Positions 43,106-57,320 of a DNA stretch of 64,000 nucleotides are shown piece by piece. Origin of the DNA: Myxococcus eversor (GTDB lineage Bacteria > Myxococcota > Myxococcia > Myxococcales > Myxococcaceae); assembly GCF_010894455.1 (NCBI RefSeq), contig NZ_JAAIXY010000004.1:124001-188000 (forward strand), read 5' to 3'. Positions within the stretch are counted from its first letter, which is position 1, and every line of letters starts with the position of its first letter. The translations under genes were made by a program, and so were the position numbers. Under the pieces are notes generated by a model. That model was not told the origin of the DNA and ran no database searches. It saw nothing but the letters and a program-made list of their open reading frames with translations.

Positions 43106-44368
43106 TCAGAGCGCGCCGCCCTCGACATACAGGCGCTTGTGGTCGCGAATCTCCGCGAGCCGGAACGTCCCCGGTGCGGGCGTCTTCGCCTCGGGAGCGT
43201 CCGAGGGCAGCTTCATCAGCCGCTCGTACTCCTCGATGGAGACGCGCTCTCGCCGGGCCAGCACTCCGTCCAGGTCCGCGCGTGCCATCCGCTCCGCCGC
43301 CTTCTCCCCGACGACGCCGGAGAAGAACTCCGCCATGCAGCCGCTGCCGTAGGACAGCAGGCCGATGCGCTGGGACGCGAGCTGCGCGCCCTCGCGATGC
43401 AGCAGCCCCGCCACCGCCAGGTACAGCGACGCCGTGTACACGTTGCCGATGCGCGCGTTGAGCCCCAGCGACGAGGCCACCTGCGCGTCGTAGCTGGCCG
43501 CGGACTTCGCCACCTCCTCGCGAGCCTCCGGCGTGCCGGGCCCAGGACCCACCGCGTCCTCCAAGTCACAGAGGCGAAGCTGGGTGTGCGCCTTGCGAGC
43601 CATCTTGCAGAAGGGCACGTGGTAGGCGATTCGCGCGAGCTGCTCGCCGGGCAGGGCGCCCGACCAGCGCACCAGCCCGTGCTCCAGTGCCTTCTCGCGC
43701 CAGCCCCGGTACGCACCCGACAGGGCTTCCAGATAGCAGTTGATGGAATAGTGCCCGTCCACCAGCGCCTCCCGTCGGCCGATGGGCCGCCAGAAGTCGT
43801 AGACATCCATGGTGCACGTGCCGTTGAGGCCCAGGTCCAGCGCGAGGAGGTCCGGCTGCTCGGAGACGAGCAGCGCCACAGCGCCGCCGCCCTGGGTCGG
43901 CTCGCCCGCCGTGTTCAGGCCGTAGCGCGCGATGTCCGAGCACACGACGATGGCCACCTTGCCCGCGCCCGCGCCGGAGGCAATCCACTCCGTCGCGGCC
44001 ATCAGCCCCGCGGTGCCGCCGTAGCAGGCGTGCTGCGTGTCATACGTGCGCATGGTGCGCGGCAGCTTCAGCAGGCCCTGGACGTGCGAGGCCACCGGCT
44101 TCGAGTGGTCGATGCCTGTCTCCGTGCCCACCACCAGCATGCCGATGCGGGACGTGTCCACGCCCTGCTGCTGGATGAGCCGCGCCGCCGCCGTCGCGGC
44201 CAGGGACACCGTGTCCTCGCCGGGGTCCGTGACGGCCATCTCCTTCGCGCCCAGGCCCGCGGTGAACTTGGCGGGGTCCACTCCGCGCGCGCGCGCCAGG
44301 TCCTCGATGTCGACGTATCGGGACGGCACGGCCACCGCCAGCGCTTCGATTCCAACCCGTTTCTTCAT
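43106..44368 (-). CDS. mvaS: Hydroxymethylglutaryl-CoA synthase (MvaS) of the AIB operon
   Basis: Thiolase-fold enzyme of 420 residues that condenses acetoacetyl-CoA and acetyl-CoA to 3-hydroxy-3-methylglutaryl-CoA. The catalytic Cys is in THACYGGT-type context (TQHACYGGTAGL), with FCKMARKAH-type His motif (YHVPFCKMARKAH) and LLSYGSGCMAEFF near the end. The start ATG follows GAGGAG. In myxobacteria mvaS in the aib operon supplies HMG-CoA both for isoprenoids and, after dehydration, for the alternative isovaleryl-CoA route when leucine breakdown is insufficient. It is the last gene of the operon, 56 bases after aibC. Confidence 0.93.
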   Translation of the reverse strand: MKKRVGIEALAVAVPSRYVDIEDLARARGVDPAKFTAGLGAKEMAVTDPGEDTVSLAATAAARLIQQQGVDTSRIGMLVVGTETGIDHSKPVASHVQGLLKLPRTMRTYDTQHACYGGTAGLMAATEWIASGAGAGKVAIVVCSDIARYGLNTAGEPTQGGGAVALLVSEQPDLLALDLGLNGTCTMDVYDFWRPIGRREALVDGHYSINCYLEALSGAYRGWREKALEHGLVRWSGALPGEQLARIAYHVPFCKMARKAHTQLRLCDLEDAVGPGPGTPEAREEVAKSAASYDAQVASSLGLNARIGNVYTASLYLAVAGLLHREGAQLASQRIGLLSYGSGCMAEFFSGVVGEKAAERMARADLDGVLARRERVSIEEYERLMKLPSDAPEAKTPAPGTFRLAEIRDHKRLYVEGGAL

Positions 44369-44424
44369 GAGACTCCTCGCTTCCAATTCGTGCCTCAAAC
44401 CCCGGTTGCTGTCTCGACGGCTGC

Positions 44425-45462
44425 TCAGGCTTCGGGGGGGACCAGCACCAGCCGGCCCGCCACTTCTCGGTTTTCCAGCCGGAAATGGGCCCGGGCCGCT
44501 TCAGCCAGCGGCACCGTGTCCGTGACGAACTGTCGCACTCCACCGGTGGCGGTCAGCCGGAGCGCCTCATCCAGCTCCGCCTGGTTCGTGGCGTACGCGC
44601 CGATGATCTCCAGCTCTTTGACAATGACAAGCCCGGGATTGATTTGCACGAGTCCCGATTCGAGGTTGCCCACCACGACGAGCCGGCCGCCGGGTGCGAT
44701 GCATTTCAATGATTGGTCAAAGGTGGCGCTGCCCACGATTTCAACCACCAGGTCCACGCCCGCACCGCTGGTTCGCTTGCGCACCTCCGCCGCGAAATCC
44801 AATCCTTTCGAGAGGATGACCTCATCCGCACCCGCATCCCGCAGCGGCTTCACCTTGGCTTCGCCGGACGTCACCGCGATGACGCGCGCGCCATCCAGCC
44901 TGGCGAGCTGCACGGCGGACATGCCCACGCCACCACTGGCGCCGGTGATGAGCACTGTTTCACCCGCCCGCACCTTGCCCCGCGTGCGCAGCGTGTGAAC
45001 CGCCGTGCCCGTGGTGCAACAGACCGTGGCCGCCTCGGCCCAGGGCAGCGAGGCGGGCACCCGGCCCAGGCCCGCGACGGGCGCCACCATGAACTGCGAG
45101 TAGCCGCCGGGCAGTTCCTCGCCGAAGAAGCGATTGTCCCCCTTGCACAAGCTGTTTCGCCCGCTGCGACACAGCCCGCACTCGCCACATGACAGCCTTT
45201 GCAGCGTCGCCGCGCGGTCGCCTGTCTTCCAGCCTGGCGTATCAGGACCCACCGCCACGACTTCGCCAGCGGCCTCGTGGCCGAGAATCGCGGGGACGCT
45301 GGTGCGGGGCAGGTTGCCTCGGCGGTTGATGACGTCGTGATAGCAGACGCCACATGCGTGCACCTTGAGCAGCACCTCGCCCCGGCCCGGAGTGGGTACC
45401 GGGACGTTCTCCATCTTCAAATTCCCGGCTTCACCGAAACTGCGCAGAACAACAGCCTTCAT
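44425..45462 (-). CDS. aibC: AibC, medium-chain dehydrogenase reducing dimethylacrylyl-CoA
   Basis: NAD(P)H-dependent enoyl reductase of 345 residues, MDR superfamily. The N-terminal GroES-like domain has HACGVCYHDVINRRG, GHEAAGEV and a structural zinc site CGECGLCRSGRNSLC; the Rossmann domain has VLITGASGGVGMSAVQL. In M. xanthus AibC reduces 3,3-dimethylacrylyl-CoA to isovaleryl-CoA, the last step of the AIB route. Assignment rests on family plus operon position after aibB. The ATG at 45462 was chosen because GGAGGT lies 6 bases before it; an ATG two codons earlier abuts that site. Confidence 0.9.
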   Translation of the reverse strand: MKAVVLRSFGEAGNLKMENVPVPTPGRGEVLLKVHACGVCYHDVINRRGNLPRTSVPAILGHEAAGEVVAVGPDTPGWKTGDRAATLQRLSCGECGLCRSGRNSLCKGDNRFFGEELPGGYSQFMVAPVAGLGRVPASLPWAEAATVCCTTGTAVHTLRTRGKVRAGETVLITGASGGVGMSAVQLARLDGARVIAVTSGEAKVKPLRDAGADEVILSKGLDFAAEVRKRTSGAGVDLVVEIVGSATFDQSLKCIAPGGRLVVVGNLESGLVQINPGLVIVKELEIIGAYATNQAELDEALRLTATGGVRQFVTDTVPLAEAARAHFRLENREVAGRLVLVPPEA

Positions 45463-45507
45463 CTCCATACCTCCGAGAGCAATTCCAGACACGAGTGGTG
45501 TCGAGGG

Positions 45508-46248
45508 TCAGCGACCGACGAGCTGTTCGCGGTATCCGCGAGGGTCCAACGCACGGATGGCTGTGATTGTGCGGGCATCCGGCAGCGACGTGACGGGCAG
45601 GGCCTCGTCCACGGTGAACTCGAAGCCGGTGCGCTCGGCGATGTCCTCCGCCGTGGCCCACGGGTGGCGAGCCGTCAACCGAGCACCGGAGGCGCCCAGC
45701 TCGAAGACACCCAGGTCCGAGATGAGGCGCACCGTGCGGCGCGGGTCCTGCGTCGTCGCCACCTGGACTTCCGGCACCAGGTTGCGGCGCGACTGGCGAG
45801 GCACCAGCAGCACGGGCCGATGCACCCACTGCCGCAGCGTCGCCGCGCCCGCGACGCCCGGGAACTTCGTGCGGGGTCGCGCGAGGCTTCCGCTGGCCGT
45901 CATGTTGGTGCGGCCGATGGCATCCACCTCGGCCGCGCCGAAGAAGACGGTGTCCACCCGACCGCGCCGCGCATGGTCGAACAAGTCGGGGATGGTGATT
46001 TCCGCCGAGCGGCCCTCCAGGTAGCCCAGGTCCTCGGAGGAGGGCAGCAGCGTGGAGATGTCCGGGTCCAACGAGCCCACGCAGGCCAGGTACGTCAGGT
46101 CTGGCGCATGGGTGGCCCGGGCCACGGCGATGGCGAGGATGGCGAGCGGCGAGGCGACGCCCGTGGCCACCACGGCGCCGTCTTCAATCTGGAGCGCGAG
46201 CAGGGCAACCACGGTCTCCGCGGGAGTGGGGTCGAACGTGGCGCTCAT
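45508..46248 (-). CDS. aibB: AibB, subunit of 3-methylglutaconyl-CoA decarboxylase
   Basis: Subunit of 246 residues of the AibA/AibB heterotetramer, derived from CoA-transferase family I (glutaconate CoA-transferase-like) but acting as a decarboxylase that turns 3-methylglutaconyl-CoA into 3,3-dimethylacrylyl-CoA. Typical transferases use a Glu in this subunit; here the aligned stretch reads LTYLACVGSLDPD with Cys56, in line with the Cys reported (as I recall) for the M. xanthus enzyme. Further features are FFGAAEVDAIGRTNMT and a C-terminal TARHPWATAEDI. The start overlaps aibA by 4 bases. Confidence 0.92.
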   Translation of the reverse strand: MSATFDPTPAETVVALLALQIEDGAVVATGVASPLAILAIAVARATHAPDLTYLACVGSLDPDISTLLPSSEDLGYLEGRSAEITIPDLFDHARRGRVDTVFFGAAEVDAIGRTNMTASGSLARPRTKFPGVAGAATLRQWVHRPVLLVPRQSRRNLVPEVQVATTQDPRRTVRLISDLGVFELGASGARLTARHPWATAEDIAERTGFEFTVDEALPVTSLPDARTITAIRALDPRGYREQLVGR

Positions 46249-47042
46249 GCCGCCCTCCGCGTCTTCACCGAGGCGAGGAACTCCGCCTCACGGCCGGTCT
46301 CCGCGAGCGCCAGGTAGCGCGACAGCATTTCGTCGTCGTGCGGATACAGTCCGGTGCAGCCGGTGGGCAGTGCGCCGCCCGGTGCGAGGACGATGCGGTC
46401 CACCTGGAAGCCGGGAATCGTCGCGCGAGGCAGGCGCTTCACGCGCTCCTCCACCGTGGCAATCACCCGCCGCGCGGCGCCCGCGACGAGCAGGTCCGTG
46501 GTGGGGTCCTCGATGAAGAGGTTGCCGCGCTCATCCGCCGCTCGCGCGTGGACCAGCGCGACATCCGGGAAGTACGCGGGCTCCACCGGGACGCTCTCAC
46601 CGGTGAATGGGTCCACCACGGTGCGCGGCGGCTCCGCGCTCGCGAGGCCCGACACATCCGCGTCCGGCGCGGGGATGAAGGGCAGCCCCATGGAGGCCGC
46701 GCGCAGCCGCTGGACGACGCGATACCCGTCGTGCTCGCGCCAGGAGAGGGTGTTCTGCTCAATCGCCCGCTTGATGCAGGGCATGGGGCGCACGCGGCCC
46801 TCCAGGCTCAGCGCGCCGAAGGCGATGTCCAGGTGCGCCAGACATCCGCCCGCGACGAGGAGCTCGGCGGGCAGCGGGTTGGGCAGGGAGATGAGGCGCA
46901 GCCCGCGACGCTCCTGGGCAATCAGCTCCATCACCAGCGCCATGGGGGCGCGGCCGAGCATGAAGCCGCCCGTGGCCAGCGAAGCGCCGTCGGGAATCGA
47001 CGCGACGGCTTCCTCCAGGGAACACCAGCGCGCGGTCTTCAC
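46245..47042 (-). CDS. aibA: AibA, subunit of 3-methylglutaconyl-CoA decarboxylase
   Basis: Partner subunit of 265 residues in the AibA/AibB enzyme, CoA-transferase family I alpha type. Features: LEEAVASIPDGASLATGGFM near the N-terminus (oxyanion-type loop), PMPCIKRAIEQ, ALVHARAADERGN and a C-terminal YLALAETGREAEFLA. The start is a GTG that overlaps the aibR stop by 4 bases (GTGA) and follows GGAGG; an ATG start further upstream would run deep into aibR. It binds the CoA moiety together with AibB. Operon order aibR-aibA-aibB-aibC-mvaS matches M. xanthus. Confidence 0.92.
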   Translation of the reverse strand: MKTARWCSLEEAVASIPDGASLATGGFMLGRAPMALVMELIAQERRGLRLISLPNPLPAELLVAGGCLAHLDIAFGALSLEGRVRPMPCIKRAIEQNTLSWREHDGYRVVQRLRAASMGLPFIPAPDADVSGLASAEPPRTVVDPFTGESVPVEPAYFPDVALVHARAADERGNLFIEDPTTDLLVAGAARRVIATVEERVKRLPRATIPGFQVDRIVLAPGGALPTGCTGLYPHDDEMLSRYLALAETGREAEFLASVKTRRAA

Positions 47043-47722
47043 GGCTCCTCCGTTCCGGAGCCGGAGCCTGAGGCGGCGCGGGGGACCACTCGCAGCGAGG
47101 AGACACCGGGCTGCCCGTCGACCGCGGCGGCGACGATGGGCGGGAAGAGGAGGTCCACCATGCCGTCGGCGATCTGCTCGTCCGACAGGCGCCCGTCGGG
47201 CTTGAACCACTTGTAGACCCACAGCACCATGCCCAGGAACGAGAACGCGCCGATGGTCGGGTCCACCGGACGGATGCGTCCCTGCTGCGCGGCCTGCGAG
47301 AAGGCCTCTTCCAGGAAGTCGACGTAGCGCTTCTTGCGGTTGTCGATGAACGCGCGCGCCTCACCGGTGAGCGTGGCGTGCTCGTGGAGGATGATGATGA
47401 CCTCCTTGCTCCACCCGCGCGTCACCAGAAGGATGTTGTGGCGCATGCACGCGCGCAGCCGGTCCACCGGGTCCGCGATGTCCTGAACGTGCGAGAGCAC
47501 CTGCTCCTCGAACAGGTCCATCCCGTAGTTCATGATGGCGAAGAGCAGCTGCTCCTTGTTCTGGATGTGGTGGTAGAGCCCCGCCTTCGTCATCCGGCAC
47601 GCGGCGGCGATCTCCTGCATCGAGGTGCCTTCGTAGCCGCGCTCGCAGATGAGCCGCGCCGCCGTCTCCAGGATGGCCTTGTAGCGCTCGCCCTCATCCG
47701 GCTTCCGTCCGCTCGTCGTCAC
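47039..47722 (-). CDS. aibR: AibR, TetR-family regulator of the AIB operon
   Basis: Repressor of about 227 residues. The helix-turn-helix is EGTSMQEIAAACRMTKAGLYHH with flanking LICERGY (shown in part); the C-terminal ligand domain contains YVDFLEEAFSQ and LWVYKWFKPDG, like other CoA-responsive TetR proteins (LiuR/AcuR group). M. xanthus AibR responds to isovaleryl-CoA and controls the aib operon. The GTG at 47722, preceded by GAGGGA, is preferred; a GTG at 47764 would place the start codon right against the operator palindrome. It heads the operon and overlaps aibA by 4 bases. Confidence 0.92.
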   Translation of the reverse strand: MTTSGRKPDEGERYKAILETAARLICERGYEGTSMQEIAAACRMTKAGLYHHIQNKEQLLFAIMNYGMDLFEEQVLSHVQDIADPVDRLRACMRHNILLVTRGWSKEVIIILHEHATLTGEARAFIDNRKKRYVDFLEEAFSQAAQQGRIRPVDPTIGAFSFLGMVLWVYKWFKPDGRLSDEQIADGMVDLLFPPIVAAAVDGQPGVSSLRVVPRAASGSGSGTEEP

Positions 47723-47765
47723 ATGTCCCTCGTCTTGATGGACTGTAAGTTTTTCCGAATCCACG

Positions 47766-47976: not shown

Positions 47977-48819
47977 ATGCGTCTCTCCCTGCTGTGGGCT
48001 GGAGCCGTCCCTTTGATGTTCGCCACGTCGGCCGAAGCTCAGCGAATCACTCCGATTGAGGGCAGCCGTTCGGTGTCCGCGAGCATCTCCGCGGTGGATG
48101 CGGTGACGCACGTGGTGGACTCGGATTCGCGCAACACGACGGCCTTCGCGCCCTTCAACGAGAACATCTCTCTCGATGCGAACACCCAGTACGAGGGCTC
48201 GCCGAGTCGTGTGAATGCGAAGGGCAGTGGCGCCCAGTCCTCGCGCATCACCGACCGGCAGATTGAAGCGTCGGTCTCCGCCAGCGCCGAGGGCCTGGCG
48301 AACGACTCCTCCGCGCGCGGGCAGGGCGTGGGCAACGCGGACATGTACCTGACGTTCGAGCTGAACCGCCGCGCGCGCTACGTAGTGACCGCCCGTGCGA
48401 CGGCGACGTCGACGGCGTCGACCTCGGGGCAGCCCTTCGGCGGTGTTTCGAGCCTGCTCTACATCGCGAACATGGAGAGCGGGACGCCGGTGCTGTCGAT
48501 TGACATCAGCGGGGGTGAAACGGAGTCGGTGTCGCAGACGGGCTGGATGCCGGCGGGGCCGTACACGTTCCAGGGCGACGTCTCCGCCCTGGTGGATGCC
48601 CGGCAGGGACATGGCACGGTGTCAGGCTCGTGGGCGGTGAACCTGCGGCTGTTCTGCGCCTCGGATTTCAATGCGAATGGCGTGGTGGACGGCGTGGACC
48701 GCGCGGCGTTCCTGAGCGCCTGGAACGCGGGCAACGCGACGGCGGACATCGACGGCAATGGCGTGGTGAACCGCGCGGACCACGACGTGTTCATGCTGGC
48801 CCACGGTCGCGGCTGCTGA
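47977..48819 (+). CDS. Secreted protein with C-terminal dockerin-like calcium-binding repeats
   Basis: Exported protein of 280 residues. The signal peptide ends near residue 21 (AEAQRI). A beta-rich domain of unknown family fills about residues 25-225, with a Ser/Thr/Ala-rich stretch. The last 55 residues contain two dockerin/EF-hand-like repeats: DFNANGVVDGVDRAAFLSAW and DIDGNGVVNRADHDVFMLAH, each with the calcium-binding DxNxDG-type loop. Outside cellulosomes such repeats are found in surface and secreted proteins of planctomycetes and myxobacteria, with no proven cohesin partner. The ATG follows GGAGGT. A terminator hairpin follows the gene. Confidence 0.8.
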   Translation: MRLSLLWAGAVPLMFATSAEAQRITPIEGSRSVSASISAVDAVTHVVDSDSRNTTAFAPFNENISLDANTQYEGSPSRVNAKGSGAQSSRITDRQIEASVSASAEGLANDSSARGQGVGNADMYLTFELNRRARYVVTARATATSTASTSGQPFGGVSSLLYIANMESGTPVLSIDISGGETESVSQTGWMPAGPYTFQGDVSALVDARQGHGTVSGSWAVNLRLFCASDFNANGVVDGVDRAAFLSAWNAGNATADIDGNGVVNRADHDVFMLAHGRGC

Positions 48820-49141: not shown

Positions 49142-50488
49142 ATGGCCACCCAATTCCTTGATTCCGCACCTGTGTTGGGAGACTCGTTCGAGCGCTCGGA
49201 TTCCATGTGTTCGAATCATGATGCAGGGCGCCATGAGCGTCGGAAGGACTGGCATCCCATCCTGAGTGGTGCGCATCAGGCCGAAGCGTTGGAAGTGGTT
49301 GAAGCGACCGCGAGGGATGTCGCTGCAATGAAGAGGGGCGGCGAGCCTGGCCGGCTCGCGGATGGGCATGCTGGTTATGCTCTCTTCTTTTCTGCCGCCG
49401 CGAACTTTGCCGCACAGGATGTTACGCAAGAGATTGCTCGCAGCCTGCAACTCGCGACGGCTCGCTTCGCATATGACAAACGGCCGCCTCTAGGGCTGCA
49501 CTGGGGTTTTGCCGGACTGGGATGGGTCGCCGCACACCTCGCGGCTCGCAATCCAGGTCTTGATGTCCAGGAACTCTGCACCACCATTGATGCGCGACTT
49601 CTGTCCGCGCTCCAGGTGCGACCCTGGCCTCATCCCTGTGATATCCGGGATGGGCTGGCTGGTATCGGGCTCTATGCCCTTCAGCGACTCCATCTTACCG
49701 CGGGGAGGCGCCTGCTCGCGCGCGTCGTAGAAGTGCTGGATGATACGGCGCAGGTCTCCCCAGAGGGGGTCACCTGGCCGATGCCTCGGGACTATTGGTC
49801 CATCTATGGAGAAGGGGTCGGGTTTCCTCAGGGCCTCTACGTGTTGGGTGTGGCTCATGGCGTTCCGGGGGCCCTGGCCATTCTTGCCGCGGCGCATGCC
49901 AACGGCATCGAGCGCGAAAGGGCAGACAGGCTCCTTCGGGGCGGGTTTCGCTGGGTCACCCTGCAGGCACGGGAGCAGCAGGGGCATCCCTATTTCCCAC
50001 ACTTCCTGAAGGGCGCGACTCCGGTGGAGGATGAGCGCTTCAGTTGGTGCGTGGGAAACCCGGGAGTCGTCTCGGTTTTGTGGTGGGCCGCGAGGTTGTG
50101 GGGAGACGTGGAATGGCAAGCGCGCACCTCGGGTTGGGCATTGCGCGTGGCCCGTGAAGGCTTGGACCGGCGTCCGGGCCGCAATGCGAATCTGTGTTGT
50201 GGAACATCGGGTACGGCGTTGATCTTCATGCGGCTGTACCATGCAACAGGGCAGCCCTTGTTCCAGGAGGTTGCGATTCGCTGGCTCCAGCACACCCTTG
50301 CCCTGCGGACCCCCGGTGTGGGACCGGGTGGCTTTTGCTTCGAAATGAACCCGGACCAGCCCTCCGCCAACCTTCATTTTGGTGCAACCGGCATCGCACT
50401 GACCCTCTTGGCCGCGGCCTCGGACATCGAGCCTGATTGGGATCAGGGTTTTCTATTCTCGCTCAAGTCGAACCCGAACGCTTTCTAG
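49142..50488 (+). CDS. lanC: LanC-type lanthipeptide cyclase
   Basis: Cyclase of 448 residues that adds Cys thiols to dehydrated Ser/Thr of the precursor to form (methyl)lanthionine rings. The alpha-toroid repeats include HWGFAGLGWVAAHLA, DIRDGLAGIGLYALQ, GVAHGVPGALAIL and LHFGATGIALTLL. The zinc site is WCVGNPG (Cys303) and LCCGTSG (Cys352-Cys353); most LanC proteins have Cys-His there. The first ATG is used, with GAGGTAGGG rather far upstream; a start at 49205 would shorten a non-conserved N-terminus. It is the first gene of the cluster, 143 bases before the precursor gene, an unusual order. Catalysis should depend on the paired LanB. Confidence 0.92.
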   Translation: MATQFLDSAPVLGDSFERSDSMCSNHDAGRHERRKDWHPILSGAHQAEALEVVEATARDVAAMKRGGEPGRLADGHAGYALFFSAAANFAAQDVTQEIARSLQLATARFAYDKRPPLGLHWGFAGLGWVAAHLAARNPGLDVQELCTTIDARLLSALQVRPWPHPCDIRDGLAGIGLYALQRLHLTAGRRLLARVVEVLDDTAQVSPEGVTWPMPRDYWSIYGEGVGFPQGLYVLGVAHGVPGALAILAAAHANGIERERADRLLRGGFRWVTLQAREQQGHPYFPHFLKGATPVEDERFSWCVGNPGVVSVLWWAARLWGDVEWQARTSGWALRVAREGLDRRPGRNANLCCGTSGTALIFMRLYHATGQPLFQEVAIRWLQHTLALRTPGVGPGGFCFEMNPDQPSANLHFGATGIALTLLAAASDIEPDWDQGFLFSLKSNPNAF

Positions 50489-50631: not shown

Positions 50632-50808
50632 ATGGAGAAGACGCTGACCTTGAAGCTGTCGCTGGACAAGGAGACGCTGCGTGAGATCAAGGAGACCGAG
50701 CTCCTTGATGAAGTCCTGGGTGGTATCACCGACTGTAACTGCACCTGCAACTCGCAGACGGGCATCACCCACGCCAGCATCAAGGATCTGGACACTCAGG
50801 TCCCTTAG
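50632..50808 (+). CDS. lanA: Class I lanthipeptide precursor
   Basis: Precursor of 58 residues. The leader MEKTLTLKLSLDKETLREIK contains an 'LSLDKETL' stretch like the FNLD-type recognition motif of class I leaders, and ends in ELLDEVLGG, a double-glycine site for the C39 peptidase of the exporter downstream. The predicted core is 27 residues: ITDCNCTCNSQTG and then ITHASIKDLDTQVP, with Cys35, Cys37, Cys39 and seven Ser/Thr. Most Ser/Thr lie after the Cys cluster. The ATG has a perfect AGAGGAGG site. It sits between lanC and lanB. No second precursor was found nearby. Confidence 0.9.
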   Translation: MEKTLTLKLSLDKETLREIKETELLDEVLGGITDCNCTCNSQTGITHASIKDLDTQVP

Positions 50809-50927
50809 TTTGATGGGGAGGTCTTTAGTGCCTCCAGGCTGTCCCGCGTCATGGTGTTTGGCTACCAGGCGACCCTATGGGGCCGCTTGGTAGCTGTCCC
50901 GTTGTGCCTCCTCGCCTGGGAGACTTC

Positions 50928-53900
50928 ATGTCATTGCCCCTGGCTCGGGTCGAGATGCCCCTGCCGTATGTGTCTTCCGGCTTCTTTGCCTTCAGGACCC
51001 CGCTGCTGCCATTCGATGCCTTGTTGGAGTGGGGGCGAGGCCTCGGGGCTTCAGGGCAGCCGGCGGAGCGCCGCGAGGATGCACTCGCGGAGGATCGGCG
51101 ACTGCTGCGCGCTCGCTTGCGTGACTGGTGTGCCGACCCCGTCGTGAGAGAGGCCCTCTTCATTGCCTCCCCTGTGCTCTGCGAAAGCCTGTCCTCCTGG
51201 GAGTCCGCTCCAGAGTCCGAGACCGCCAGGAAGGTCGAGAAGACCTTGGTGCGCTATTTCGGGAGGATGGCGGGTCGTGCAACGCCATTTGGTCTGTTCG
51301 CCGGACATTCGGTGGGCCTCATCAAGGAGTCCGCGCGACTTCAGGTGAGTGGCCGGGACCGGATTCGCAGGCATACGCGATTGGACATGGACTATGTCTG
51401 TGCGCTGACCGAGCGTGTGCGGCAGGACCCTTCCGTCGTCCGTGTGCTTCGATATCTTCCCAACTCCAGTCTCTACCGAGCCGGGAGCCACTGGCGGTAT
51501 CTGGAGATGCGGTCCCGGGGGCGCGATCGCTCTTACGGTCTGGTCGCGGTGGTAGGCACCTCTTATCTCGAAGCCACGTTGGAGCGAGCACGTGGCGGCT
51601 GCACCCTGGATGAGCTCGTGCAGACCTTGGTGGTGAGCCACGAGGGGGTATCTCGAGAGGATGCAGGTGCATACGTCGAGGCCCTCATCCAGTCGCACCT
51701 CCTGGTACCTACCTGGGCACCGCCGCTCACCGGCAGTGAGCCCGTACCCTCTCTTCTCGACGCTGCGCACGGTATTCCCGCGCTCTCGCAGGTCCGGGAG
51801 CAACTGACGGTGGTGCAGTCGAGGCTCGCCGCTCTCGACAGGACGAAGGGAGGACATGCGGAGGCGCCTTATCGCGATATAGCCCGGCTGCTGGAGCTTC
51901 TTCCCGTCCCGGTCGCGCTTCCTCGCCTCTTCCAGGTGGACATGTTCCGTCCTCCGGATGAGGCGACACTCTCCCCCTCCGTCGTCCGGGCGTTCCTGAA
52001 CGGCGTCAAGGTGTTGCAGCGCATCTGTCCCCGCGCGGTCGATACTCCGCTGGATCGATTCAAGCAGAAGTTCCTGGAGCAGTATGACGGCAGGCCCACG
52101 CCATTGTTGGAAGTCCTGGACGAGGAAGATGGCATCGGATTCGCCACGGATGGGCGCGCCAGCCCGGCGGCGGCGCCGCTCCTGGAGGATTTTGTCTTTC
52201 CACCCCGTGGTGTGAAGGAGTGGAGCGAATGGAGCTTCCAGCGGGAGCCTCTGCTTCGTCTCTTGGAGCGTGCCGCCCGGACTGGCGAACAGGAAATCCA
52301 GCTCACCGACGCGGATGTCGACGCGTTGGCGGCGCGACACCCAGGCGTGCTGCCAGAAGCCTTCGCCGCGATGGGGGCCGTGGCCGCGCCGTCTCAAGCG
52401 GCGATGGCACGTGGTGACTTCCGTGTCTTGTTGCTGCACGTCAATGGCCCATCTGGAGCCCGCTTCCTGGGTCGCTTCTGTCATGGCGATGCCGCGCTCG
52501 AAGCCCGGGTTCGCCAGCATCTCCGAGACGAGGAGGCCCTCCATCCAGAGGCTGTCTTCGCGGAGATTGTCCACATGCATCAGGGAAGGGTGGGCAACGT
52601 CACCTGTCGGCCGGCGCTCCGACAGCATGACCTGGTGTTCATGGGACAGTCGGGGGTACCGGAGCAAGATCGCATCGAGCTGTCGGACCTCTGGCTGGGA
52701 GTCGAGGGAGGGCGGCTCGTACTGCGCTCGAAGCGGCTGGGCAAGCAGGTCATCCCGCGTCTGTCGAATGCACACGCCTACTTCGCCTACGGCTTGGGCA
52801 TCTATCGGTTCCTCGGGGCCCTGCAGGACCAACCGTGGCAGGGCTTTCAGTTTCATTGGGGGCCCCTGAACGCGGCCCACTTCCTTCCCCGGGTGAGTCA
52901 CGGACGGGTCGTGCTCTCCCTGGCGCGCTGGAATCTCATGGCGCGTGAACTGAAGGTGCTCGGCGAGGTTCCCGAGGGTCGACGCTTCGATGCCGTGAAG
53001 CGCCTGCGCGCGGAGACCCGGATGCCACGTTGGGTGTGCCTCGTAGAGGGGGACAACCGGCTCATCGTCGACCTCGACAACGTCCTGTGCGTGGACATGC
53101 TCGTCCAGTCCATCAAGGGCCGGACACGGGTCTCGCTGGAGGAGATGTTCCCGGGGCCCGACGAACTCTGCGCTGAAGGGCCGGAGGGCCGGTACGTCCA
53201 TGAGTTGCTGATTCCGTTCGTGAGGGAGTCCGCACTCGAGGAGGTCGCTCCCATCTCCTCCGTGACGGCCCCAATGGACGGCCCCGCGCTCACACGGCGC
53301 TTTCCGCCTGGCTCCGAATGGCTCTACTTCAAGCTGTACTCGGGAGTGGGCACGGCGGACCGGCTGCTGCGGAAACTGCTGCGCGAGGAGTTGCGGCGAC
53401 TGACGAACACAGGGGCCATCCGTCACTGGTTCTTCATGCGGTACAAGGACCCGGAGTTCCATCTGCGGCTCCGGCTACAGGGTGAGCCCGCACGGTTGCT
53501 GACGGAGGTCTGGCCCTCGCTCCTCGCGGTCCTCGAGCCGTGCCTGGCCAACGGGAGCATTCGCCGCCTCCAACTCGACACCTACGAGCGGGAGGTGGAA
53601 CGCTATGGAGGGGCGGCTGGCATGGCGCTGTCCGAGGCGTTCTTCGCCGCCGACAGCGAGGCGGTGATCGACATCTTGAGTGCCTATCCGGGGGACTTGG
53701 GGGCGGACCTCCGCTGGCGCCTGGGCCTCAAGGGATTGGACTGCCTGCTGACCGACCTGGGGCAGACGCTGGGGGCCCGCATCGCCATTCTCCAGCGCCT
53801 GCGTGCTGGCTTTGGGGCCGAATTCCAGGTGAAGAAGAACTTCGAGGAGCAGCTCAGCAAGCGCTTTCGTAAGGAGCGACCGGTCCTGGAGGCTCTGCGC

Positions 53901-54170
53901 CTGGCTGACGCGTCGCAGCAAGGGCCCTGGCAATCAGCGCTTGAGGCATTCTGGCGGCGCAGCGAGCGGCTCCGTCCCGTGGCGGAGGTTCTGCGCCGGG
54001 GAATGCAGGAGGGCGCGTTCGGTGCATTGGGGGCGCAAATGATAGACAGCTTTCTCCACATGCACCTCAATCGGATGCTTCAAGACGAGCACCGGCCGCA
54101 GGAACTCATTCTGTATGACTTTCTGCTCAGGCTGTACCGCTCCGCCCAGGCACGGGAAGGAGGGGTATGA
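50928..54170 (+). CDS. lanB: LanB-type lanthipeptide dehydratase, full length
   Basis: Dehydratase of 1080 residues that activates Ser/Thr of the precursor with glutamate from glutamyl-tRNA and then eliminates it. The N-terminal lantibiotic dehydratase (glutamylation) domain spans about residues 1-770, with SGFFAFRTPLLPFD, GRMAGRATPFGLFAGH and a long middle part. The C-terminal SpaB_C/elimination domain (about 783-1070) has WLYFKLYSGVGTADRLL and HWFFMRYKDPEFHLRLRL. The ATG at 50928 follows GGGAGA at 5 bases; longer starts in frame lack such a site. The fused two-domain form is that of classical class I systems. It overlaps the HlyD-like gene by 4 bases. Confidence 0.94.
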   Translation: MSLPLARVEMPLPYVSSGFFAFRTPLLPFDALLEWGRGLGASGQPAERREDALAEDRRLLRARLRDWCADPVVREALFIASPVLCESLSSWESAPESETARKVEKTLVRYFGRMAGRATPFGLFAGHSVGLIKESARLQVSGRDRIRRHTRLDMDYVCALTERVRQDPSVVRVLRYLPNSSLYRAGSHWRYLEMRSRGRDRSYGLVAVVGTSYLEATLERARGGCTLDELVQTLVVSHEGVSREDAGAYVEALIQSHLLVPTWAPPLTGSEPVPSLLDAAHGIPALSQVREQLTVVQSRLAALDRTKGGHAEAPYRDIARLLELLPVPVALPRLFQVDMFRPPDEATLSPSVVRAFLNGVKVLQRICPRAVDTPLDRFKQKFLEQYDGRPTPLLEVLDEEDGIGFATDGRASPAAAPLLEDFVFPPRGVKEWSEWSFQREPLLRLLERAARTGEQEIQLTDADVDALAARHPGVLPEAFAAMGAVAAPSQAAMARGDFRVLLLHVNGPSGARFLGRFCHGDAALEARVRQHLRDEEALHPEAVFAEIVHMHQGRVGNVTCRPALRQHDLVFMGQSGVPEQDRIELSDLWLGVEGGRLVLRSKRLGKQVIPRLSNAHAYFAYGLGIYRFLGALQDQPWQGFQFHWGPLNAAHFLPRVSHGRVVLSLARWNLMARELKVLGEVPEGRRFDAVKRLRAETRMPRWVCLVEGDNRLIVDLDNVLCVDMLVQSIKGRTRVSLEEMFPGPDELCAEGPEGRYVHELLIPFVRESALEEVAPISSVTAPMDGPALTRRFPPGSEWLYFKLYSGVGTADRLLRKLLREELRRLTNTGAIRHWFFMRYKDPEFHLRLRLQGEPARLLTEVWPSLLAVLEPCLANGSIRRLQLDTYEREVERYGGAAGMALSEAFFAADSEAVIDILSAYPGDLGADLRWRLGLKGLDCLLTDLGQTLGARIAILQRLRAGFGAEFQVKKNFEEQLSKRFRKERPVLEALRLADASQQGPWQSALEAFWRRSERLRPVAEVLRRGMQEGAFGALGAQMIDSFLHMHLNRMLQDEHRPQELILYDFLLRLYRSAQAREGGV

Positions 54171-55114
54171 GTGACTCGCCTCGCCAGATCTTTCGTCAGG
54201 AGGCCCTGGACCACTACAATCGCAGTGAGATTCAGGGAAGCGTGCTGCGACTCACTCCAGGATGGGTGAGGGCGACCTTTTGGGCCATCATGGTGCAAGC
54301 GTTGGTATTCGCCATCGTGCTCGGTGTCGTCGCCGTCCACGACCATGCGCGGGGACCGCTGCTCCTCCGCATCAAGGGGCAGGAGGACGTCACCACCACG
54401 ATGCCGGGCCGGGTGAGTCGGATTTTGGTGAGTCGAGGCGAGTGGGTGTCGCCCGGTCAAAGCCTGGTGGAGTTCTATTCGGGAGACGAGGAGGCTCAGC
54501 GTGAGCAGACGCTCCAGGAGTTCCGGTCGCGACTTGCCGCCCAACTGCTCAATCCTCAGAGCCCCTCGGCTCAAGAGTCCGTCGCGGGCTTGCGTGCTCA
54601 GTTGGACTTCAATGAGGCGCGTCTATCGGAGCGCTCCCTCAAGTCGCCCATTCGCGGACGGGTCCAGGATGTCCGCATCCGTGAAGGCCAGTACCTTGGC
54701 GCGGGAGAAGTGGTGGTCTCCGTGGTGAGCGATGGACCCGTGGAGGTCTGGGCCCTGTCGCTCGTTCCAGGACGGTACAGACCTCAGCTTCGGACGGGGC
54801 AGCCGTTCCGCATTGAGTTGGAGGGCTTTGCCTATCAGTACACGGATCTGACGGTCGATGCCGTCAGTGATGAGTTGGTGGGACCCGCCGAGGTTCGCCG
54901 CTATCTGGGACCCTCGCTCGCGGACGTGGTCACCCTGGAAGGATCCGTGGTGGTGGTCGAGTCGCGCTTGCCGTCCGACAGCTTCGAGGTGGATGGACAT
55001 ACCTATCACTACTACACGGGCATGCCGGGCACGGCGTGGGTGCGATTGAGGGCGCGGAGCGCCTGGTTGACCCTGTTCCCCATCCTGGAGTTGCTCTGGA
55101 GAGACCTTGGCTGA
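54167..55114 (+). CDS. HlyD-type periplasmic adaptor of the lanthipeptide exporter
   Basis: Adaptor of 315 residues with one N-terminal membrane helix (FWAIMVQALVFAIVLGVVAV, about residues 38-60). Lipoyl-like halves GRVSRILVSRGEWVSPGQ and IRGRVQDVRIREGQYLGAGE surround a short helical hairpin (about 105-155). The hairpin is shorter than in haemolysin-type adaptors. A beta-barrel domain and a final hydrophobic stretch follow. It would connect the ABC exporter to an outer-membrane channel, needed for export through a Gram-negative envelope; no channel gene is in the cluster. Overlaps lanB by 4 bases and the exporter gene by 8. Confidence 0.88.
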   Translation: MSDSPRQIFRQEALDHYNRSEIQGSVLRLTPGWVRATFWAIMVQALVFAIVLGVVAVHDHARGPLLLRIKGQEDVTTTMPGRVSRILVSRGEWVSPGQSLVEFYSGDEEAQREQTLQEFRSRLAAQLLNPQSPSAQESVAGLRAQLDFNEARLSERSLKSPIRGRVQDVRIREGQYLGAGEVVVSVVSDGPVEVWALSLVPGRYRPQLRTGQPFRIELEGFAYQYTDLTVDAVSDELVGPAEVRRYLGPSLADVVTLEGSVVVVESRLPSDSFEVDGHTYHYYTGMPGTAWVRLRARSAWLTLFPILELLWRDLG

Positions 55115-57320
55115 TCCGGTTTCCGAGTCGGCGGTGCGGTTCCCCGCGCTGCAAAGACTGGGGGAGCGGCTGCGTGGGCGGCGCATCCCCTTCGTCGCCC
55201 AGTTCACCGCCGTGGATTGCGGTGCGGCTTGTCTGGCCATGGTGCTGGGGTACTGGGGGCGTCCCACTCGGATGGACGACATCCAGGGGGTCGCAGGGCT
55301 GAGTCCCCATGGCATCAGCGCGCGGGCTTTACTGGAGGTCGGCCGGCGCTTCGGCTTGAGGGGGCGTGCGGTCCAGGTCGACATTCAACAGATGCACCTC
55401 TTGGACTCGGGGGCCATTCTTCATTGGGAGTTCCGGCATTTCGTCGTCTTCGAGCGGATGACCCGGACTGGCGTGGAGTTGCTCGACCCGGGGCTTGGTC
55501 GCCGCTACCTCTCCCTGGAGCAGTTCCGCAAGGCCTTCACGGGAGTGGCGCTGCTCTTCGAGCCCTCGGAGACCTTCGAAACGGGCAAGGCCGCGAGGGG
55601 GCCACACCGCTATTTCCAAACACTTAAGGCGGCGAGGCCGCTTCTGTTGCGTGTGGGCGCACTCTCCCTGCTCCTCCAGTTTCTGGCCCTGGCCTTGCCG
55701 TCGTTGACGGGTGTGGTGGTGGACAGGCTCGTCCCCAGCGGGGACATGTCATTGCTGGCGGTGCTGGCGGTGGGCATGTCAGGCATCGTCGTGTTCCAGT
55801 TGGTGTCGTCGCTGATCCGCTCCCATCTGCTGCTGCACCTGCGGACCAACCTTGATGCCCGTTTGACAGTGGGCTTCCTGGACCACCTGGTGCACCTGCC
55901 GTTCCCGTTCTTCCAGTTGCGGTCGGTCGGCGACCTGATGGGGCGCATCAACAGCAACACCACGGTTCGCGAGGTGCTGACGTCCGGTGCCCTGTCCGCG
56001 TTGATCGATGGCGGGCTTGTCTTCCTGTACCTGGGGCTCCTCCTCCTTGGGAGCTGGAAGCTGGGGCTGCTGGCGTTGGGCATGGCCTTCCTGAATCTCG
56101 TCGTCTTCCTCCTGGTGCGTGCGCGACGGCGGGAGCTCATGACCCAGAGCCTGGAGGTGGGGGCCACGGCCCAGAACTATGAGGTCGAGATGCTCGCGGG
56201 CATGCAGACCATCAAGGCCATGGGGCTGGAGCTTCGCGCCGTCCAGAACTGGTCGAGCCTCTATGTGGACACGCTCAACGTCACGTTGGACCGCGGGCGT
56301 CTGGAGGCGGTCTTCGATGCGGTGACGGCTGCGTTGCGGATGGCCTCGCCCCTCATCTTGATGATGTTGGGCGCATATCAGGTGATGAACCGGCAGCTCA
56401 GCTTGGGGGAGATGCTTGCGCTCAACGCGCTGGCCGCGGGTTTCCTTGGGCCGGTGTCCGGTCTCCTGGGCACGGCCTCCCAGTTCCAGTTGGTCGGCAG
56501 CTACCTGGATCGCGTGGACGACGTGCTGGAGGCTCCGTTGGAGCAGCCGGCGGGCAGCCTGCGCAACAGCATCCAACTGCGTGGCGGCATTCAGGTGAAG
56601 AACGTCTTCTTCCGCTATGGTCCGATGACGCCCTGGGTGGTCCAGGACGTCTCCTTGGAGATCGAGCCAGGACAGTTCGTGGCGATCGTCGGGCGGTCGG
56701 GTGCTGGAAAATCCAGCCTGGCCCAGCTCCTGTTGGGGCTCTACGTTCCGAGCGAGGGCAGCATCCGCTATGACGGCGTGGCGCTGAACGAACTGGACCT
56801 GCACGAGCTTCGGCGTCAGGTGGGCGTCGTGCTGCAGAACCCCATGCTCTTTCGGGGAGACATCCGGCGGAACATTGCCTACGCGGATCCTGAGCTGTCA
56901 CTGGACAAAGTGATGGAGGCTGCGAGCCGCGCGCAGGTGCATGACGACATTCAGCGCATGCCCATGGGGTACAGCACCTTGTTGAGCGACATGGGGGCAT
57001 CCGTGTCGGGAGGGCAGCGCCAGCGTCTGGCCCTGGCGCGAGCGCTCGCCAGAGACCCGTCCATTCTGCTGCTGGACGAAGCCACGAATGCGCTGGACGT
57101 CAAGACCGAGAAGGCGGTGCAGAGCGCGCTGTCCTCGCTGCGGTGCACGCGAATCGTGATTGCCCACCGCCTCAGTACCATCCGTGAAGCGGACGTCATC
57201 CTCGTGATGCATGAGGGACGTCTGGTGGAGCGGGGCACGCACCAGGAACTGCTCGCTCTTCGCGGGCACTACCATGGGCTCGTGTCGACCCAGGACCTCT
57301 CCATAGAGCACGCCGCTTAG
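55107..57320 (+). CDS. Peptidase-containing ABC exporter (C39-TMD-NBD)
   Basis: Bifunctional exporter (PCAT) of 737 residues that cuts the leader after Gly-Gly and exports the core. The C39 peptidase domain (about 25-150) has Gln32 and Cys38 in QFTAVDCGAACL, His111 in FRHFVVFE and Asp127 in LLDPGLG, so the catalytic triad is complete. Six membrane helices (about 175-455) precede the ATPase with Walker A GRSGAGKSS, signature VSGGQRQRLALARAL and Walker B ILLLDEATN, then the H-loop IAHRLST. The start is a TTG after GGAGAG, overlapping the adaptor gene by 8 bases. It matches the double-glycine leader of the precursor. Confidence 0.94.
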   Translation: MADPVSESAVRFPALQRLGERLRGRRIPFVAQFTAVDCGAACLAMVLGYWGRPTRMDDIQGVAGLSPHGISARALLEVGRRFGLRGRAVQVDIQQMHLLDSGAILHWEFRHFVVFERMTRTGVELLDPGLGRRYLSLEQFRKAFTGVALLFEPSETFETGKAARGPHRYFQTLKAARPLLLRVGALSLLLQFLALALPSLTGVVVDRLVPSGDMSLLAVLAVGMSGIVVFQLVSSLIRSHLLLHLRTNLDARLTVGFLDHLVHLPFPFFQLRSVGDLMGRINSNTTVREVLTSGALSALIDGGLVFLYLGLLLLGSWKLGLLALGMAFLNLVVFLLVRARRRELMTQSLEVGATAQNYEVEMLAGMQTIKAMGLELRAVQNWSSLYVDTLNVTLDRGRLEAVFDAVTAALRMASPLILMMLGAYQVMNRQLSLGEMLALNALAAGFLGPVSGLLGTASQFQLVGSYLDRVDDVLEAPLEQPAGSLRNSIQLRGGIQVKNVFFRYGPMTPWVVQDVSLEIEPGQFVAIVGRSGAGKSSLAQLLLGLYVPSEGSIRYDGVALNELDLHELRRQVGVVLQNPMLFRGDIRRNIAYADPELSLDKVMEAASRAQVHDDIQRMPMGYSTLLSDMGASVSGGQRQRLALARALARDPSILLLDEATNALDVKTEKAVQSALSSLRCTRIVIAHRLSTIREADVILVMHEGRLVERGTHQELLALRGHYHGLVSTQDLSIEHAA

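What the first reader, a model, noticed from the sequence alone, without database searches (positions are those of the whole stretch)
50632..50808. Lanthipeptide core with an N-terminal Cys cluster and most Ser/Thr downstream
Seen: after Gly30-Gly31 the core has Cys35, Cys37 and Cys39, one Thr before them, one Thr between, and Ser41, Thr43, Thr46, Ser49 and Thr55 after them. Known: in most class I lanthipeptides rings form between an upstream dehydrated residue and a downstream Cys. Inference: this core must use mainly reversed-direction rings (Cys upstream of the acceptor), or only few rings, or leave dehydro residues open. Such a topology would make it a structurally unusual class I product.
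Basis: partly seen in the sequence, partly recalled or inferred. Interest (0 to 1): 0.72.

Follow-up and report, generated by a model that had tools for sequence, protein, structure and literature searches.

The report
Class I lanthipeptide with three-cysteine cyclase
A myxobacterium encodes a small antibiotic-like peptide whose cysteines sit before most of the residues they should bond to, and its ring-forming enzyme carries the three-cysteine metal site so far characterised only in an unrelated enzyme class known to close rings in both directions, so this may be a new natural way to make backwards rings.

Summary
ORF 50632-50808 (58 aa) has Gly30-Gly31, Cys35/37/39, Thr33 and Thr38 as the only upstream Ser/Thr, and five Ser/Thr downstream. 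It lies in a complete class I cluster: lanC, precursor, lanB, HlyD and C39-peptidase ABC exporter. By shuffling, the residue order alone is unremarkable (P about 0.1). What raises its value is the cyclase beside it: LanC has Cys-Cys-Cys (CCG) instead of Cys-Cys-His (CHG) at the zinc triad, the ligand set of the ProcM clade, published as forming rings in both directions. In 195 Myxococcota genomes I found six such LanCs, forming one clade. Their precursors fall into four core families; three cannot pair every Cys with an upstream Ser/Thr, against 1 of 13 families next to CHG LanCs. Related LanB clusters without LanC have almost Cys-free precursors. In the one ortholog (M. qinghaiensis) residues 1-46 are identical while the tail 47-58 has diverged, so Ser49 and Thr55 are not conserved acceptors. 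Best reading: a class I variant (LanB plus three-Cys LanC) making at least one Cys-first ring. This is inferred; no product chemistry was available. A published survey tabulated only two such pairings among 977 peptides.

The parts
50632..50724 (+). leader peptide, residues 1-31, ending in the double-Gly site LLDEVLGG
   Evidence: Translation. Weak matches to NF038153 class I lanthipeptide leader (15.3 bits, cut-off 22) and TIGR04149 (15.1, cut-off 25). Identical in the ortholog; precursor codons 1-46 differ at 1 of 22 four-fold sites, against 0.24-0.30 in neighbouring genes.
50725..50769 (+). conserved core, residues 32-46: ITDCNCTCNSQTGIT (Cys35/37/39; Thr33, Thr38, Ser41, Thr43, Thr46)
   Evidence: No amino-acid change against the M. 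qinghaiensis ortholog.
50770..50808 (+). unconserved C-terminal tail, residues 47-58, and stop codon
   Evidence: 8 of 12 residues differ in the ortholog: HASIKDLDTQVP against RANSKGEADQAP.
49142..50488 (+). LanC-like cyclase with a three-Cys zinc triad
   Evidence: PF05147, E 4.8e-28; CCG instead of CHG; best solved relatives by sequence and fold are class I cyclase MadC 8byk, then LanCL and NisC.
50048..50053 (+). Cys303-Val304 of LanC: first zinc Cys, and Val where NisC has Tyr285
   Evidence: Motif FSWCVGNPG, invariant WCVG in the five aligned three-Cys LanCs; NisC Tyr285 / LanCL1 His277 position described in PMC9934072.
50195..50200 (+). Cys352-Cys353 of LanC: second and third zinc ligands; His is canonical at the third
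   Evidence: Motif ANLCCGTSG; CHG in every other LanC of the family that has a recognisable triad.
50877..54170 (+). full-length LanB dehydratase (glutamylation and elimination domains); the true start may be a later ATG
   Evidence: PF04738 E 1.9e-166 and PF14028 E 1e-66; Y..R...R.TPFG pattern and HMHLNR present, the latter aligned to NisB His961.
54167..55114 (+). HlyD-type membrane-fusion protein
   Evidence: PF13437 E 3.5e-12, PF16576 E 1.5e-11.
55107..57320 (+). ABC exporter with N-terminal C39 double-Gly peptidase
   Evidence: PF03412 E 1.7e-31, PF00664, PF00005; NHLP-type exporter TIGR03796 590 bits, below its cut-off of 853.

Best explanation
A class I-type lanthipeptide cluster. LanB dehydrates Ser/Thr of the core ITDCNCTCNSQTGIT. 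A stand-alone LanC, whose zinc is predicted to be held by Cys303, Cys352 and Cys353, then adds the Cys thiols to dehydro residues in both directions, including at least one ring in which the Cys precedes its partner (candidates: Cys35/37/39 onto residues 41, 43 or 46, or Cys37 onto adjacent Thr38 as in mersacidin ring A). The C39-ABC/HlyD exporter cuts after Gly31 and secretes the product. Shown: gene content, motifs, conservation, the clade, and the association of cyclase type with core type. Inferred: zinc binding, which Ser/Thr are dehydrated, ring direction and topology, cleavage site and product activity.
For: Complete cluster with intact dehydratase motifs and exporter. At most two Ser/Thr lie upstream of any Cys and one is adjacent to its Cys, so three forward rings are impossible. 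LanC has CCG where family LanCs have CHG and belongs to a six-member clade with support 100. Cores beside this clade: three of four families lack full forward pairing, against 1 of 13 beside CHG LanCs; all four have Ser/Thr after the last Cys, against 3 of 13 (Fisher 0.022 and 0.015). Most extreme is NKKGRCQCLFTRGGGCNTTG in G093, with no Ser/Thr before its first two Cys. Published: ProcM-clade enzymes, defined by three Cys ligands, close rings in both directions, while class I LanC usually does not (PMC13060382). Cys content follows LanC: six related LanB loci have no LanC beside lanB, and the precursors found in five of them are Cys-free but for two with one Cys.
Against: No product or mass data. 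The three-Cys clade has one origin, so the core association is not a set of independent events and the Fisher values overstate it. Two of its members (TIVWLSNNCCDYT...) can be fully paired forward. The only ortholog is too similar to test covariation. Three Cys ligands were shown to matter in fused LanM enzymes, not in stand-alone LanC. [quoted passage not shown] The position after the first zinc Cys is Val, so the active site also differs from ProcM (reported to have His there, PMC9934072).
Confidence: 0.6

Rival explanations
1. Few rings: LanC closes one or two forward rings (Thr33 to Cys37 or Cys39, possibly Thr38 to Cys39), and the remaining Cys stay free or form a disulfide after export.
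For: Thr33 is conserved and upstream of all three Cys. Class I LanC usually works in this direction (PMC13060382). Export by a C39-ABC system would expose free thiols to oxidation.
Against: Leaves conserved Ser41, Thr43 and Thr46 without a role in rings. Does not explain the three-Cys triad or the Cys-first cores of L046 and L107. An acidic residue (Asp34) flanks Thr33, which from general knowledge of NisB is unfavourable for dehydration.
Confidence: 0.22
2. Mainly a dehydropeptide: LanB leaves several Dha/Dhb open and thioether rings are secondary, as may hold for the related LanB clusters without LanC.
For: Sister LanB clusters lack LanC and encode Thr-rich, mostly Cys-free precursors. The window core has more conserved Ser/Thr (5) than Cys (3).
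Against: The window cluster has retained a LanC with conserved motifs, 91% identical to its ortholog, and has three conserved Cys. Open Dha/Dhb and reversed rings can coexist.
Confidence: 0.12
3. The CxCxC cluster is not a lanthionine substrate but a metal or redox motif of the secreted peptide; LanC acts elsewhere or is idle.
For: CNCTCN resembles short metal-binding CxC clusters (sequence only).
Against: lanC and lanB flank the precursor. Cys-bearing cores go with LanC and Cys-poor cores with its absence in the same LanB clade. The CxCxC spacing is not kept across the clade, as a metal site would need.
Confidence: 0.06

Closest known systems
Class I lanthipeptide systems (NisB/NisC; MadC; pinensins)
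   Same: Separate full-length LanB and stand-alone LanC, leader ending before the core, dedicated ABC export. MadC is the best match by sequence and fold.
   Different: Zinc triad is Cys-Cys-Cys, not Cys-Cys-His. Val replaces the Tyr after the first zinc Cys. Cys precede most conserved Ser/Thr. Gram-negative C39-ABC/HlyD exporter.
ProcM clade (class IIa, 'D-CCC': ProcM, SyncM, NpuM)
   Same: Three-Cys zinc triad. Cys-first rings are documented there (PMC13060382 for NpuM, PMC9872173 for SyncM), which is how the window's core would have to react.
   Different: LanB dehydratase instead of a fused DUF4135 dehydratase; one precursor in the own genome by search; no Nif11-type leader match; stand-alone cyclase that is not close to LanM (46 bits against 92 for the class IV model).
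'B-CCC' pairing in the survey of 977 predicted lanthipeptides (PMC11251773)
   Same: Same combination, LanB with a three-Cys cyclase. Two peptides are tabulated as nearest to such a synthetase, and the combination is counted among those not previously described in the literature.
   Different: Their two cases are not discussed individually in the main text; whether they are myxobacterial could not be checked because supplements were not readable.
Mersacidin ring A
   Same: A Cys immediately followed by Thr (here Cys37-Thr38) can close in the reverse direction (PMC9486960).
   Different: Class II enzyme, depends on a specific leader sequence; the match here is only the two-residue motif.

Membership tests
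Class I lanthipeptide system (B-CCH) | LanB with glutamylation and elimination domains and their catalytic residues | tested here: met
   PF04738 and PF14028; Y..R...R.TPFG read in the sequence, and HMH aligned to NisB His961; NisB Y80 and H961 are essential per PMC4341554.
Class I lanthipeptide system (B-CCH) | Stand-alone LanC of the LanC fold | tested here: met
   PF05147; predicted model (pLDDT 65.8, pTM 0.74) closest to MadC, LanCL2 and NisC.
Class I lanthipeptide system (B-CCH) | Cys-Cys-His zinc triad | tested here: not met
   WCVG...LCCG: third ligand is Cys353. Hence filed as a variant, not a plain member.
Class I lanthipeptide system (B-CCH) | Recognised class I leader | tested here: inconclusive
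   NF038153 15.3 bits against a cut-off of 22.
Class I lanthipeptide system (B-CCH) | (Methyl)lanthionine in the product | not testable with these tools
   Needs expression and mass spectrometry.
ProcM clade (class IIa) | Three Cys as zinc ligands | tested here: met
   By motif only; metal binding itself not tested.
ProcM clade (class IIa) | Cyclase fused to a LanM (DUF4135) dehydratase | tested here: not met
   LanC ORF is 448 aa with PF05147 only; the dehydratase is a separate LanB.
ProcM clade (class IIa) | Many unrelated precursors per enzyme | tested here: not met
   Only one match to the precursor in the own genome and one such ORF in the window. NpuM also has one substrate, so this is not strictly defining.

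The most novel reading that the evidence does not exclude
A LanB-dependent (class I) pathway has acquired, within myxobacteria, a three-Cys zinc cyclase that makes predominantly reversed thioether rings (all three Cys onto Ser41, Thr43 and Thr46). This would be the first class I lanthipeptide with Cys-first topology, as far as I found, and an independent natural test that the third Cys ligand, not the LanM context, permits reverse cyclisation.
Probability: 0.35. Interest if true: 0.8.

Novelty: new variant of a known kind. Interest (0 to 1): 0.6.

Why it matters
Ring direction in lanthipeptides is attributed partly to the substrate and partly to the cyclase's zinc ligands, but three-Cys cyclases have been characterised only as domains of class II LanM enzymes. 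A stand-alone three-Cys LanC with a short, conserved, Cys-first core lets the question be tested cleanly: change one ligand, keep the dehydratase, and read the ring direction. It would also widen the ring shapes reachable with class I enzymes.

Tried and rejected
Shuffling test of the core alone: not significant (P about 0.1), so the claim does not rest on it. Precursor search over 61 relatives: one ortholog (G004) and one weak, non-Cys-first hit. Genome-collection scan with the three-Cys LanC alignment: three loci, all from genomes already seen. Plasmid search with LanC: 13 records, all under 60% identity and not followed up. Structure model of LanC: only moderate confidence, with pLDDT under 50 at 347-351 and 278-300 beside the ligands, so it supports the fold but not the metal geometry. 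A paper on the myxobacterial melittapeptins was not held. Considered and rejected: ORF as artefact (RBS, conserved ortholog and syntenic cluster argue against); LanC as degenerate (motifs invariant in the clade).

Full report
The sequence. The ORF at 50632-50808 is real and reads as stated. It follows a strong ribosome-binding site (AGAGGAGG), lies 143 bases after lanC and 68 before lanB, and the five genes lanC, precursor, lanB, HlyD and C39-ABC run in one direction. The window lies in an 11.4 Mb genome; the closest related genome with the cluster matches contigs of Myxococcus qinghaiensis, so the source is a myxobacterium of the same genus by kinship.

Is the arrangement more than chance? 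With 3 Cys and 7 Ser/Thr in 27 residues, a random order pairs as badly (one forward pair at spacing of 2 or more) in 10.5% of shuffles. The order alone is therefore not surprising. What can be said firmly is structural: only Thr33 and Thr38 precede any Cys and Thr38 is adjacent to Cys39, so three forward rings are impossible and two would need an adjacent-residue ring.

Conservation. The single ortholog (L034) has identical residues 1-46; its tail differs at 8 of 12 residues. Four-fold sites in codons 1-46 differ at 1 of 22, against 0.24-0.30 for LanC, LanB, HlyD and ABC, so leader and core are unusually constrained or recently exchanged. The functional core is thus probably ITDCNCTCNSQTGIT, with acceptors Thr33, Thr38, Ser41, Thr43 and Thr46. 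Ser49 and Thr55 should be dropped from the argument.

The cyclase. LanC carries WCVG and LCCG where every other LanC of the family with a recognisable triad carries WC(Y/H)G and CHG. The third zinc ligand is therefore predicted to be Cys353. A published preprint states that ProcM-clade enzymes are distinguished by three Cys zinc ligands and cyclise in both directions, and that class I LanC has two Cys and one His and usually attacks an N-terminal Dha/Dhb; in NpuM three of four rings are Cys-first (PMC13060382). SyncM also makes rings in both directions (PMC9872173). A survey of 977 peptides lists LanB with a three-Cys cyclase for only two peptides and counts it among combinations not previously described (PMC11251773).

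Relatives. Among 195 Myxococcota genomes, six LanCs score in the three-Cys group: window, M. qinghaiensis, two Corallococcus-type genomes (one is C. interemptor), Archangium violaceum, and G093. They form one clade with support 100, on a long branch. Their cores: ITDCNCTCNSQTGIT...; TIVWLSNNCCDYT(H/Q)EQAN; VEAPAEPCNTTRCFTSCGTGSCTGGATKLE (three copies, two of them with ADP for AEP and GSGS for GTGS); NKKGRCQCLFTRGGGCNTTGHDNDND. Three of these four families cannot pair each Cys with an upstream Ser/Thr, against 1 of 13 families beside CHG LanCs, and all four have Ser/Thr after the last Cys against 3 of 13. The Fisher values (0.022, 0.015) treat families as independent, which the single origin of the clade does not allow; they are descriptive. 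The 13 families are my own grouping by eye, and core starts in precursors without GG were set by judgement.

A natural contrast. In the LanB tree, a 15-member clade (support 100) holds LanBs beside three-Cys LanC (5), beside CHG LanC (4) and with no LanC beside them (6). Precursors found at five of the six LanC-less loci are Cys-free except two with a single Cys. Cys content and cyclase therefore go together around one dehydratase/export type, which argues that the window's Cys are cyclase substrates. The LanC-less statement is about the loci: these genomes do hold other LanC-domain proteins, mostly over 900 aa and so probably fused synthetases.

Enzyme competence. LanB keeps the Y..R...R.TPFG pattern matching NisB Y80/R83/R87/T89 (read from the sequence) and the His aligned with NisB His961; NisB Y80 and H961 are essential (PMC4341554). 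The LanC model is moderate (pTM 0.74) but its nearest folds are MadC, LanCL2 and NisC. Val304 replaces the Tyr/His that follows the first zinc Cys in NisC/LanCL1, a second departure that none of the explanations accounts for.

Verdict. The decisive clue lay outside the coordinates, in lanC. I rate Cys-first ring formation at about 0.6 and a predominantly reversed topology at about 0.35. No chemistry has been measured.

Noticed in passing
L041, L042, L043, L044 and L039 (related LanB loci, Myxococcus and relatives): LanB/HlyD/C39-ABC type clusters without a LanC beside lanB, with double-Gly precursors (several in L041 and L042) that are Thr-rich and almost Cys-free, e.g. L044 core TITVTIKVSAE and L041 core TTPFTIIPVTIGYTIGRTLIDASDK. 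Possible LanB-only dehydropeptides (L039 lacks HlyD/ABC in the fetched stretch and its precursor lacks GG).
   Followed up: partly
L107:8785-14648: In G093 the three-Cys lanC, precursor, HlyD and C39-ABC lie without a lanB, which is found elsewhere in that genome, and with a luciferase-like flavin enzyme gene (PF00296) between lanC and precursor; the latter may reduce dehydro residues.
   Followed up: partly
50632-50769: Leader and core codons are conserved at synonymous sites well beyond the neighbouring genes (1 of 22 four-fold sites differ). This could be RNA-level constraint or recent gene conversion.
   Followed up: no
50770-50808: The tail of the precursor diverges like non-coding DNA while the core is frozen; it may be a removed follower or an unconstrained C-terminus.
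   Followed up: no
43106-47764: Minus-strand genes for an HMG-CoA-synthase-like protein, an alcohol dehydrogenase, two CoA-transferase-like subunits and a TetR-type regulator; from memory this resembles the myxobacterial isovaleryl-CoA (aib) operon.
   Followed up: no
47977-48819: Secreted-looking protein with a weak dockerin type I match (E 0.0066, below the Pfam cut-off) at its C-terminus, next to the lanthipeptide cluster.
   Followed up: no
L046:6326-7450: Three tandem, nearly identical precursor genes in Archangium violaceum beside a three-Cys LanC.
   Followed up: no
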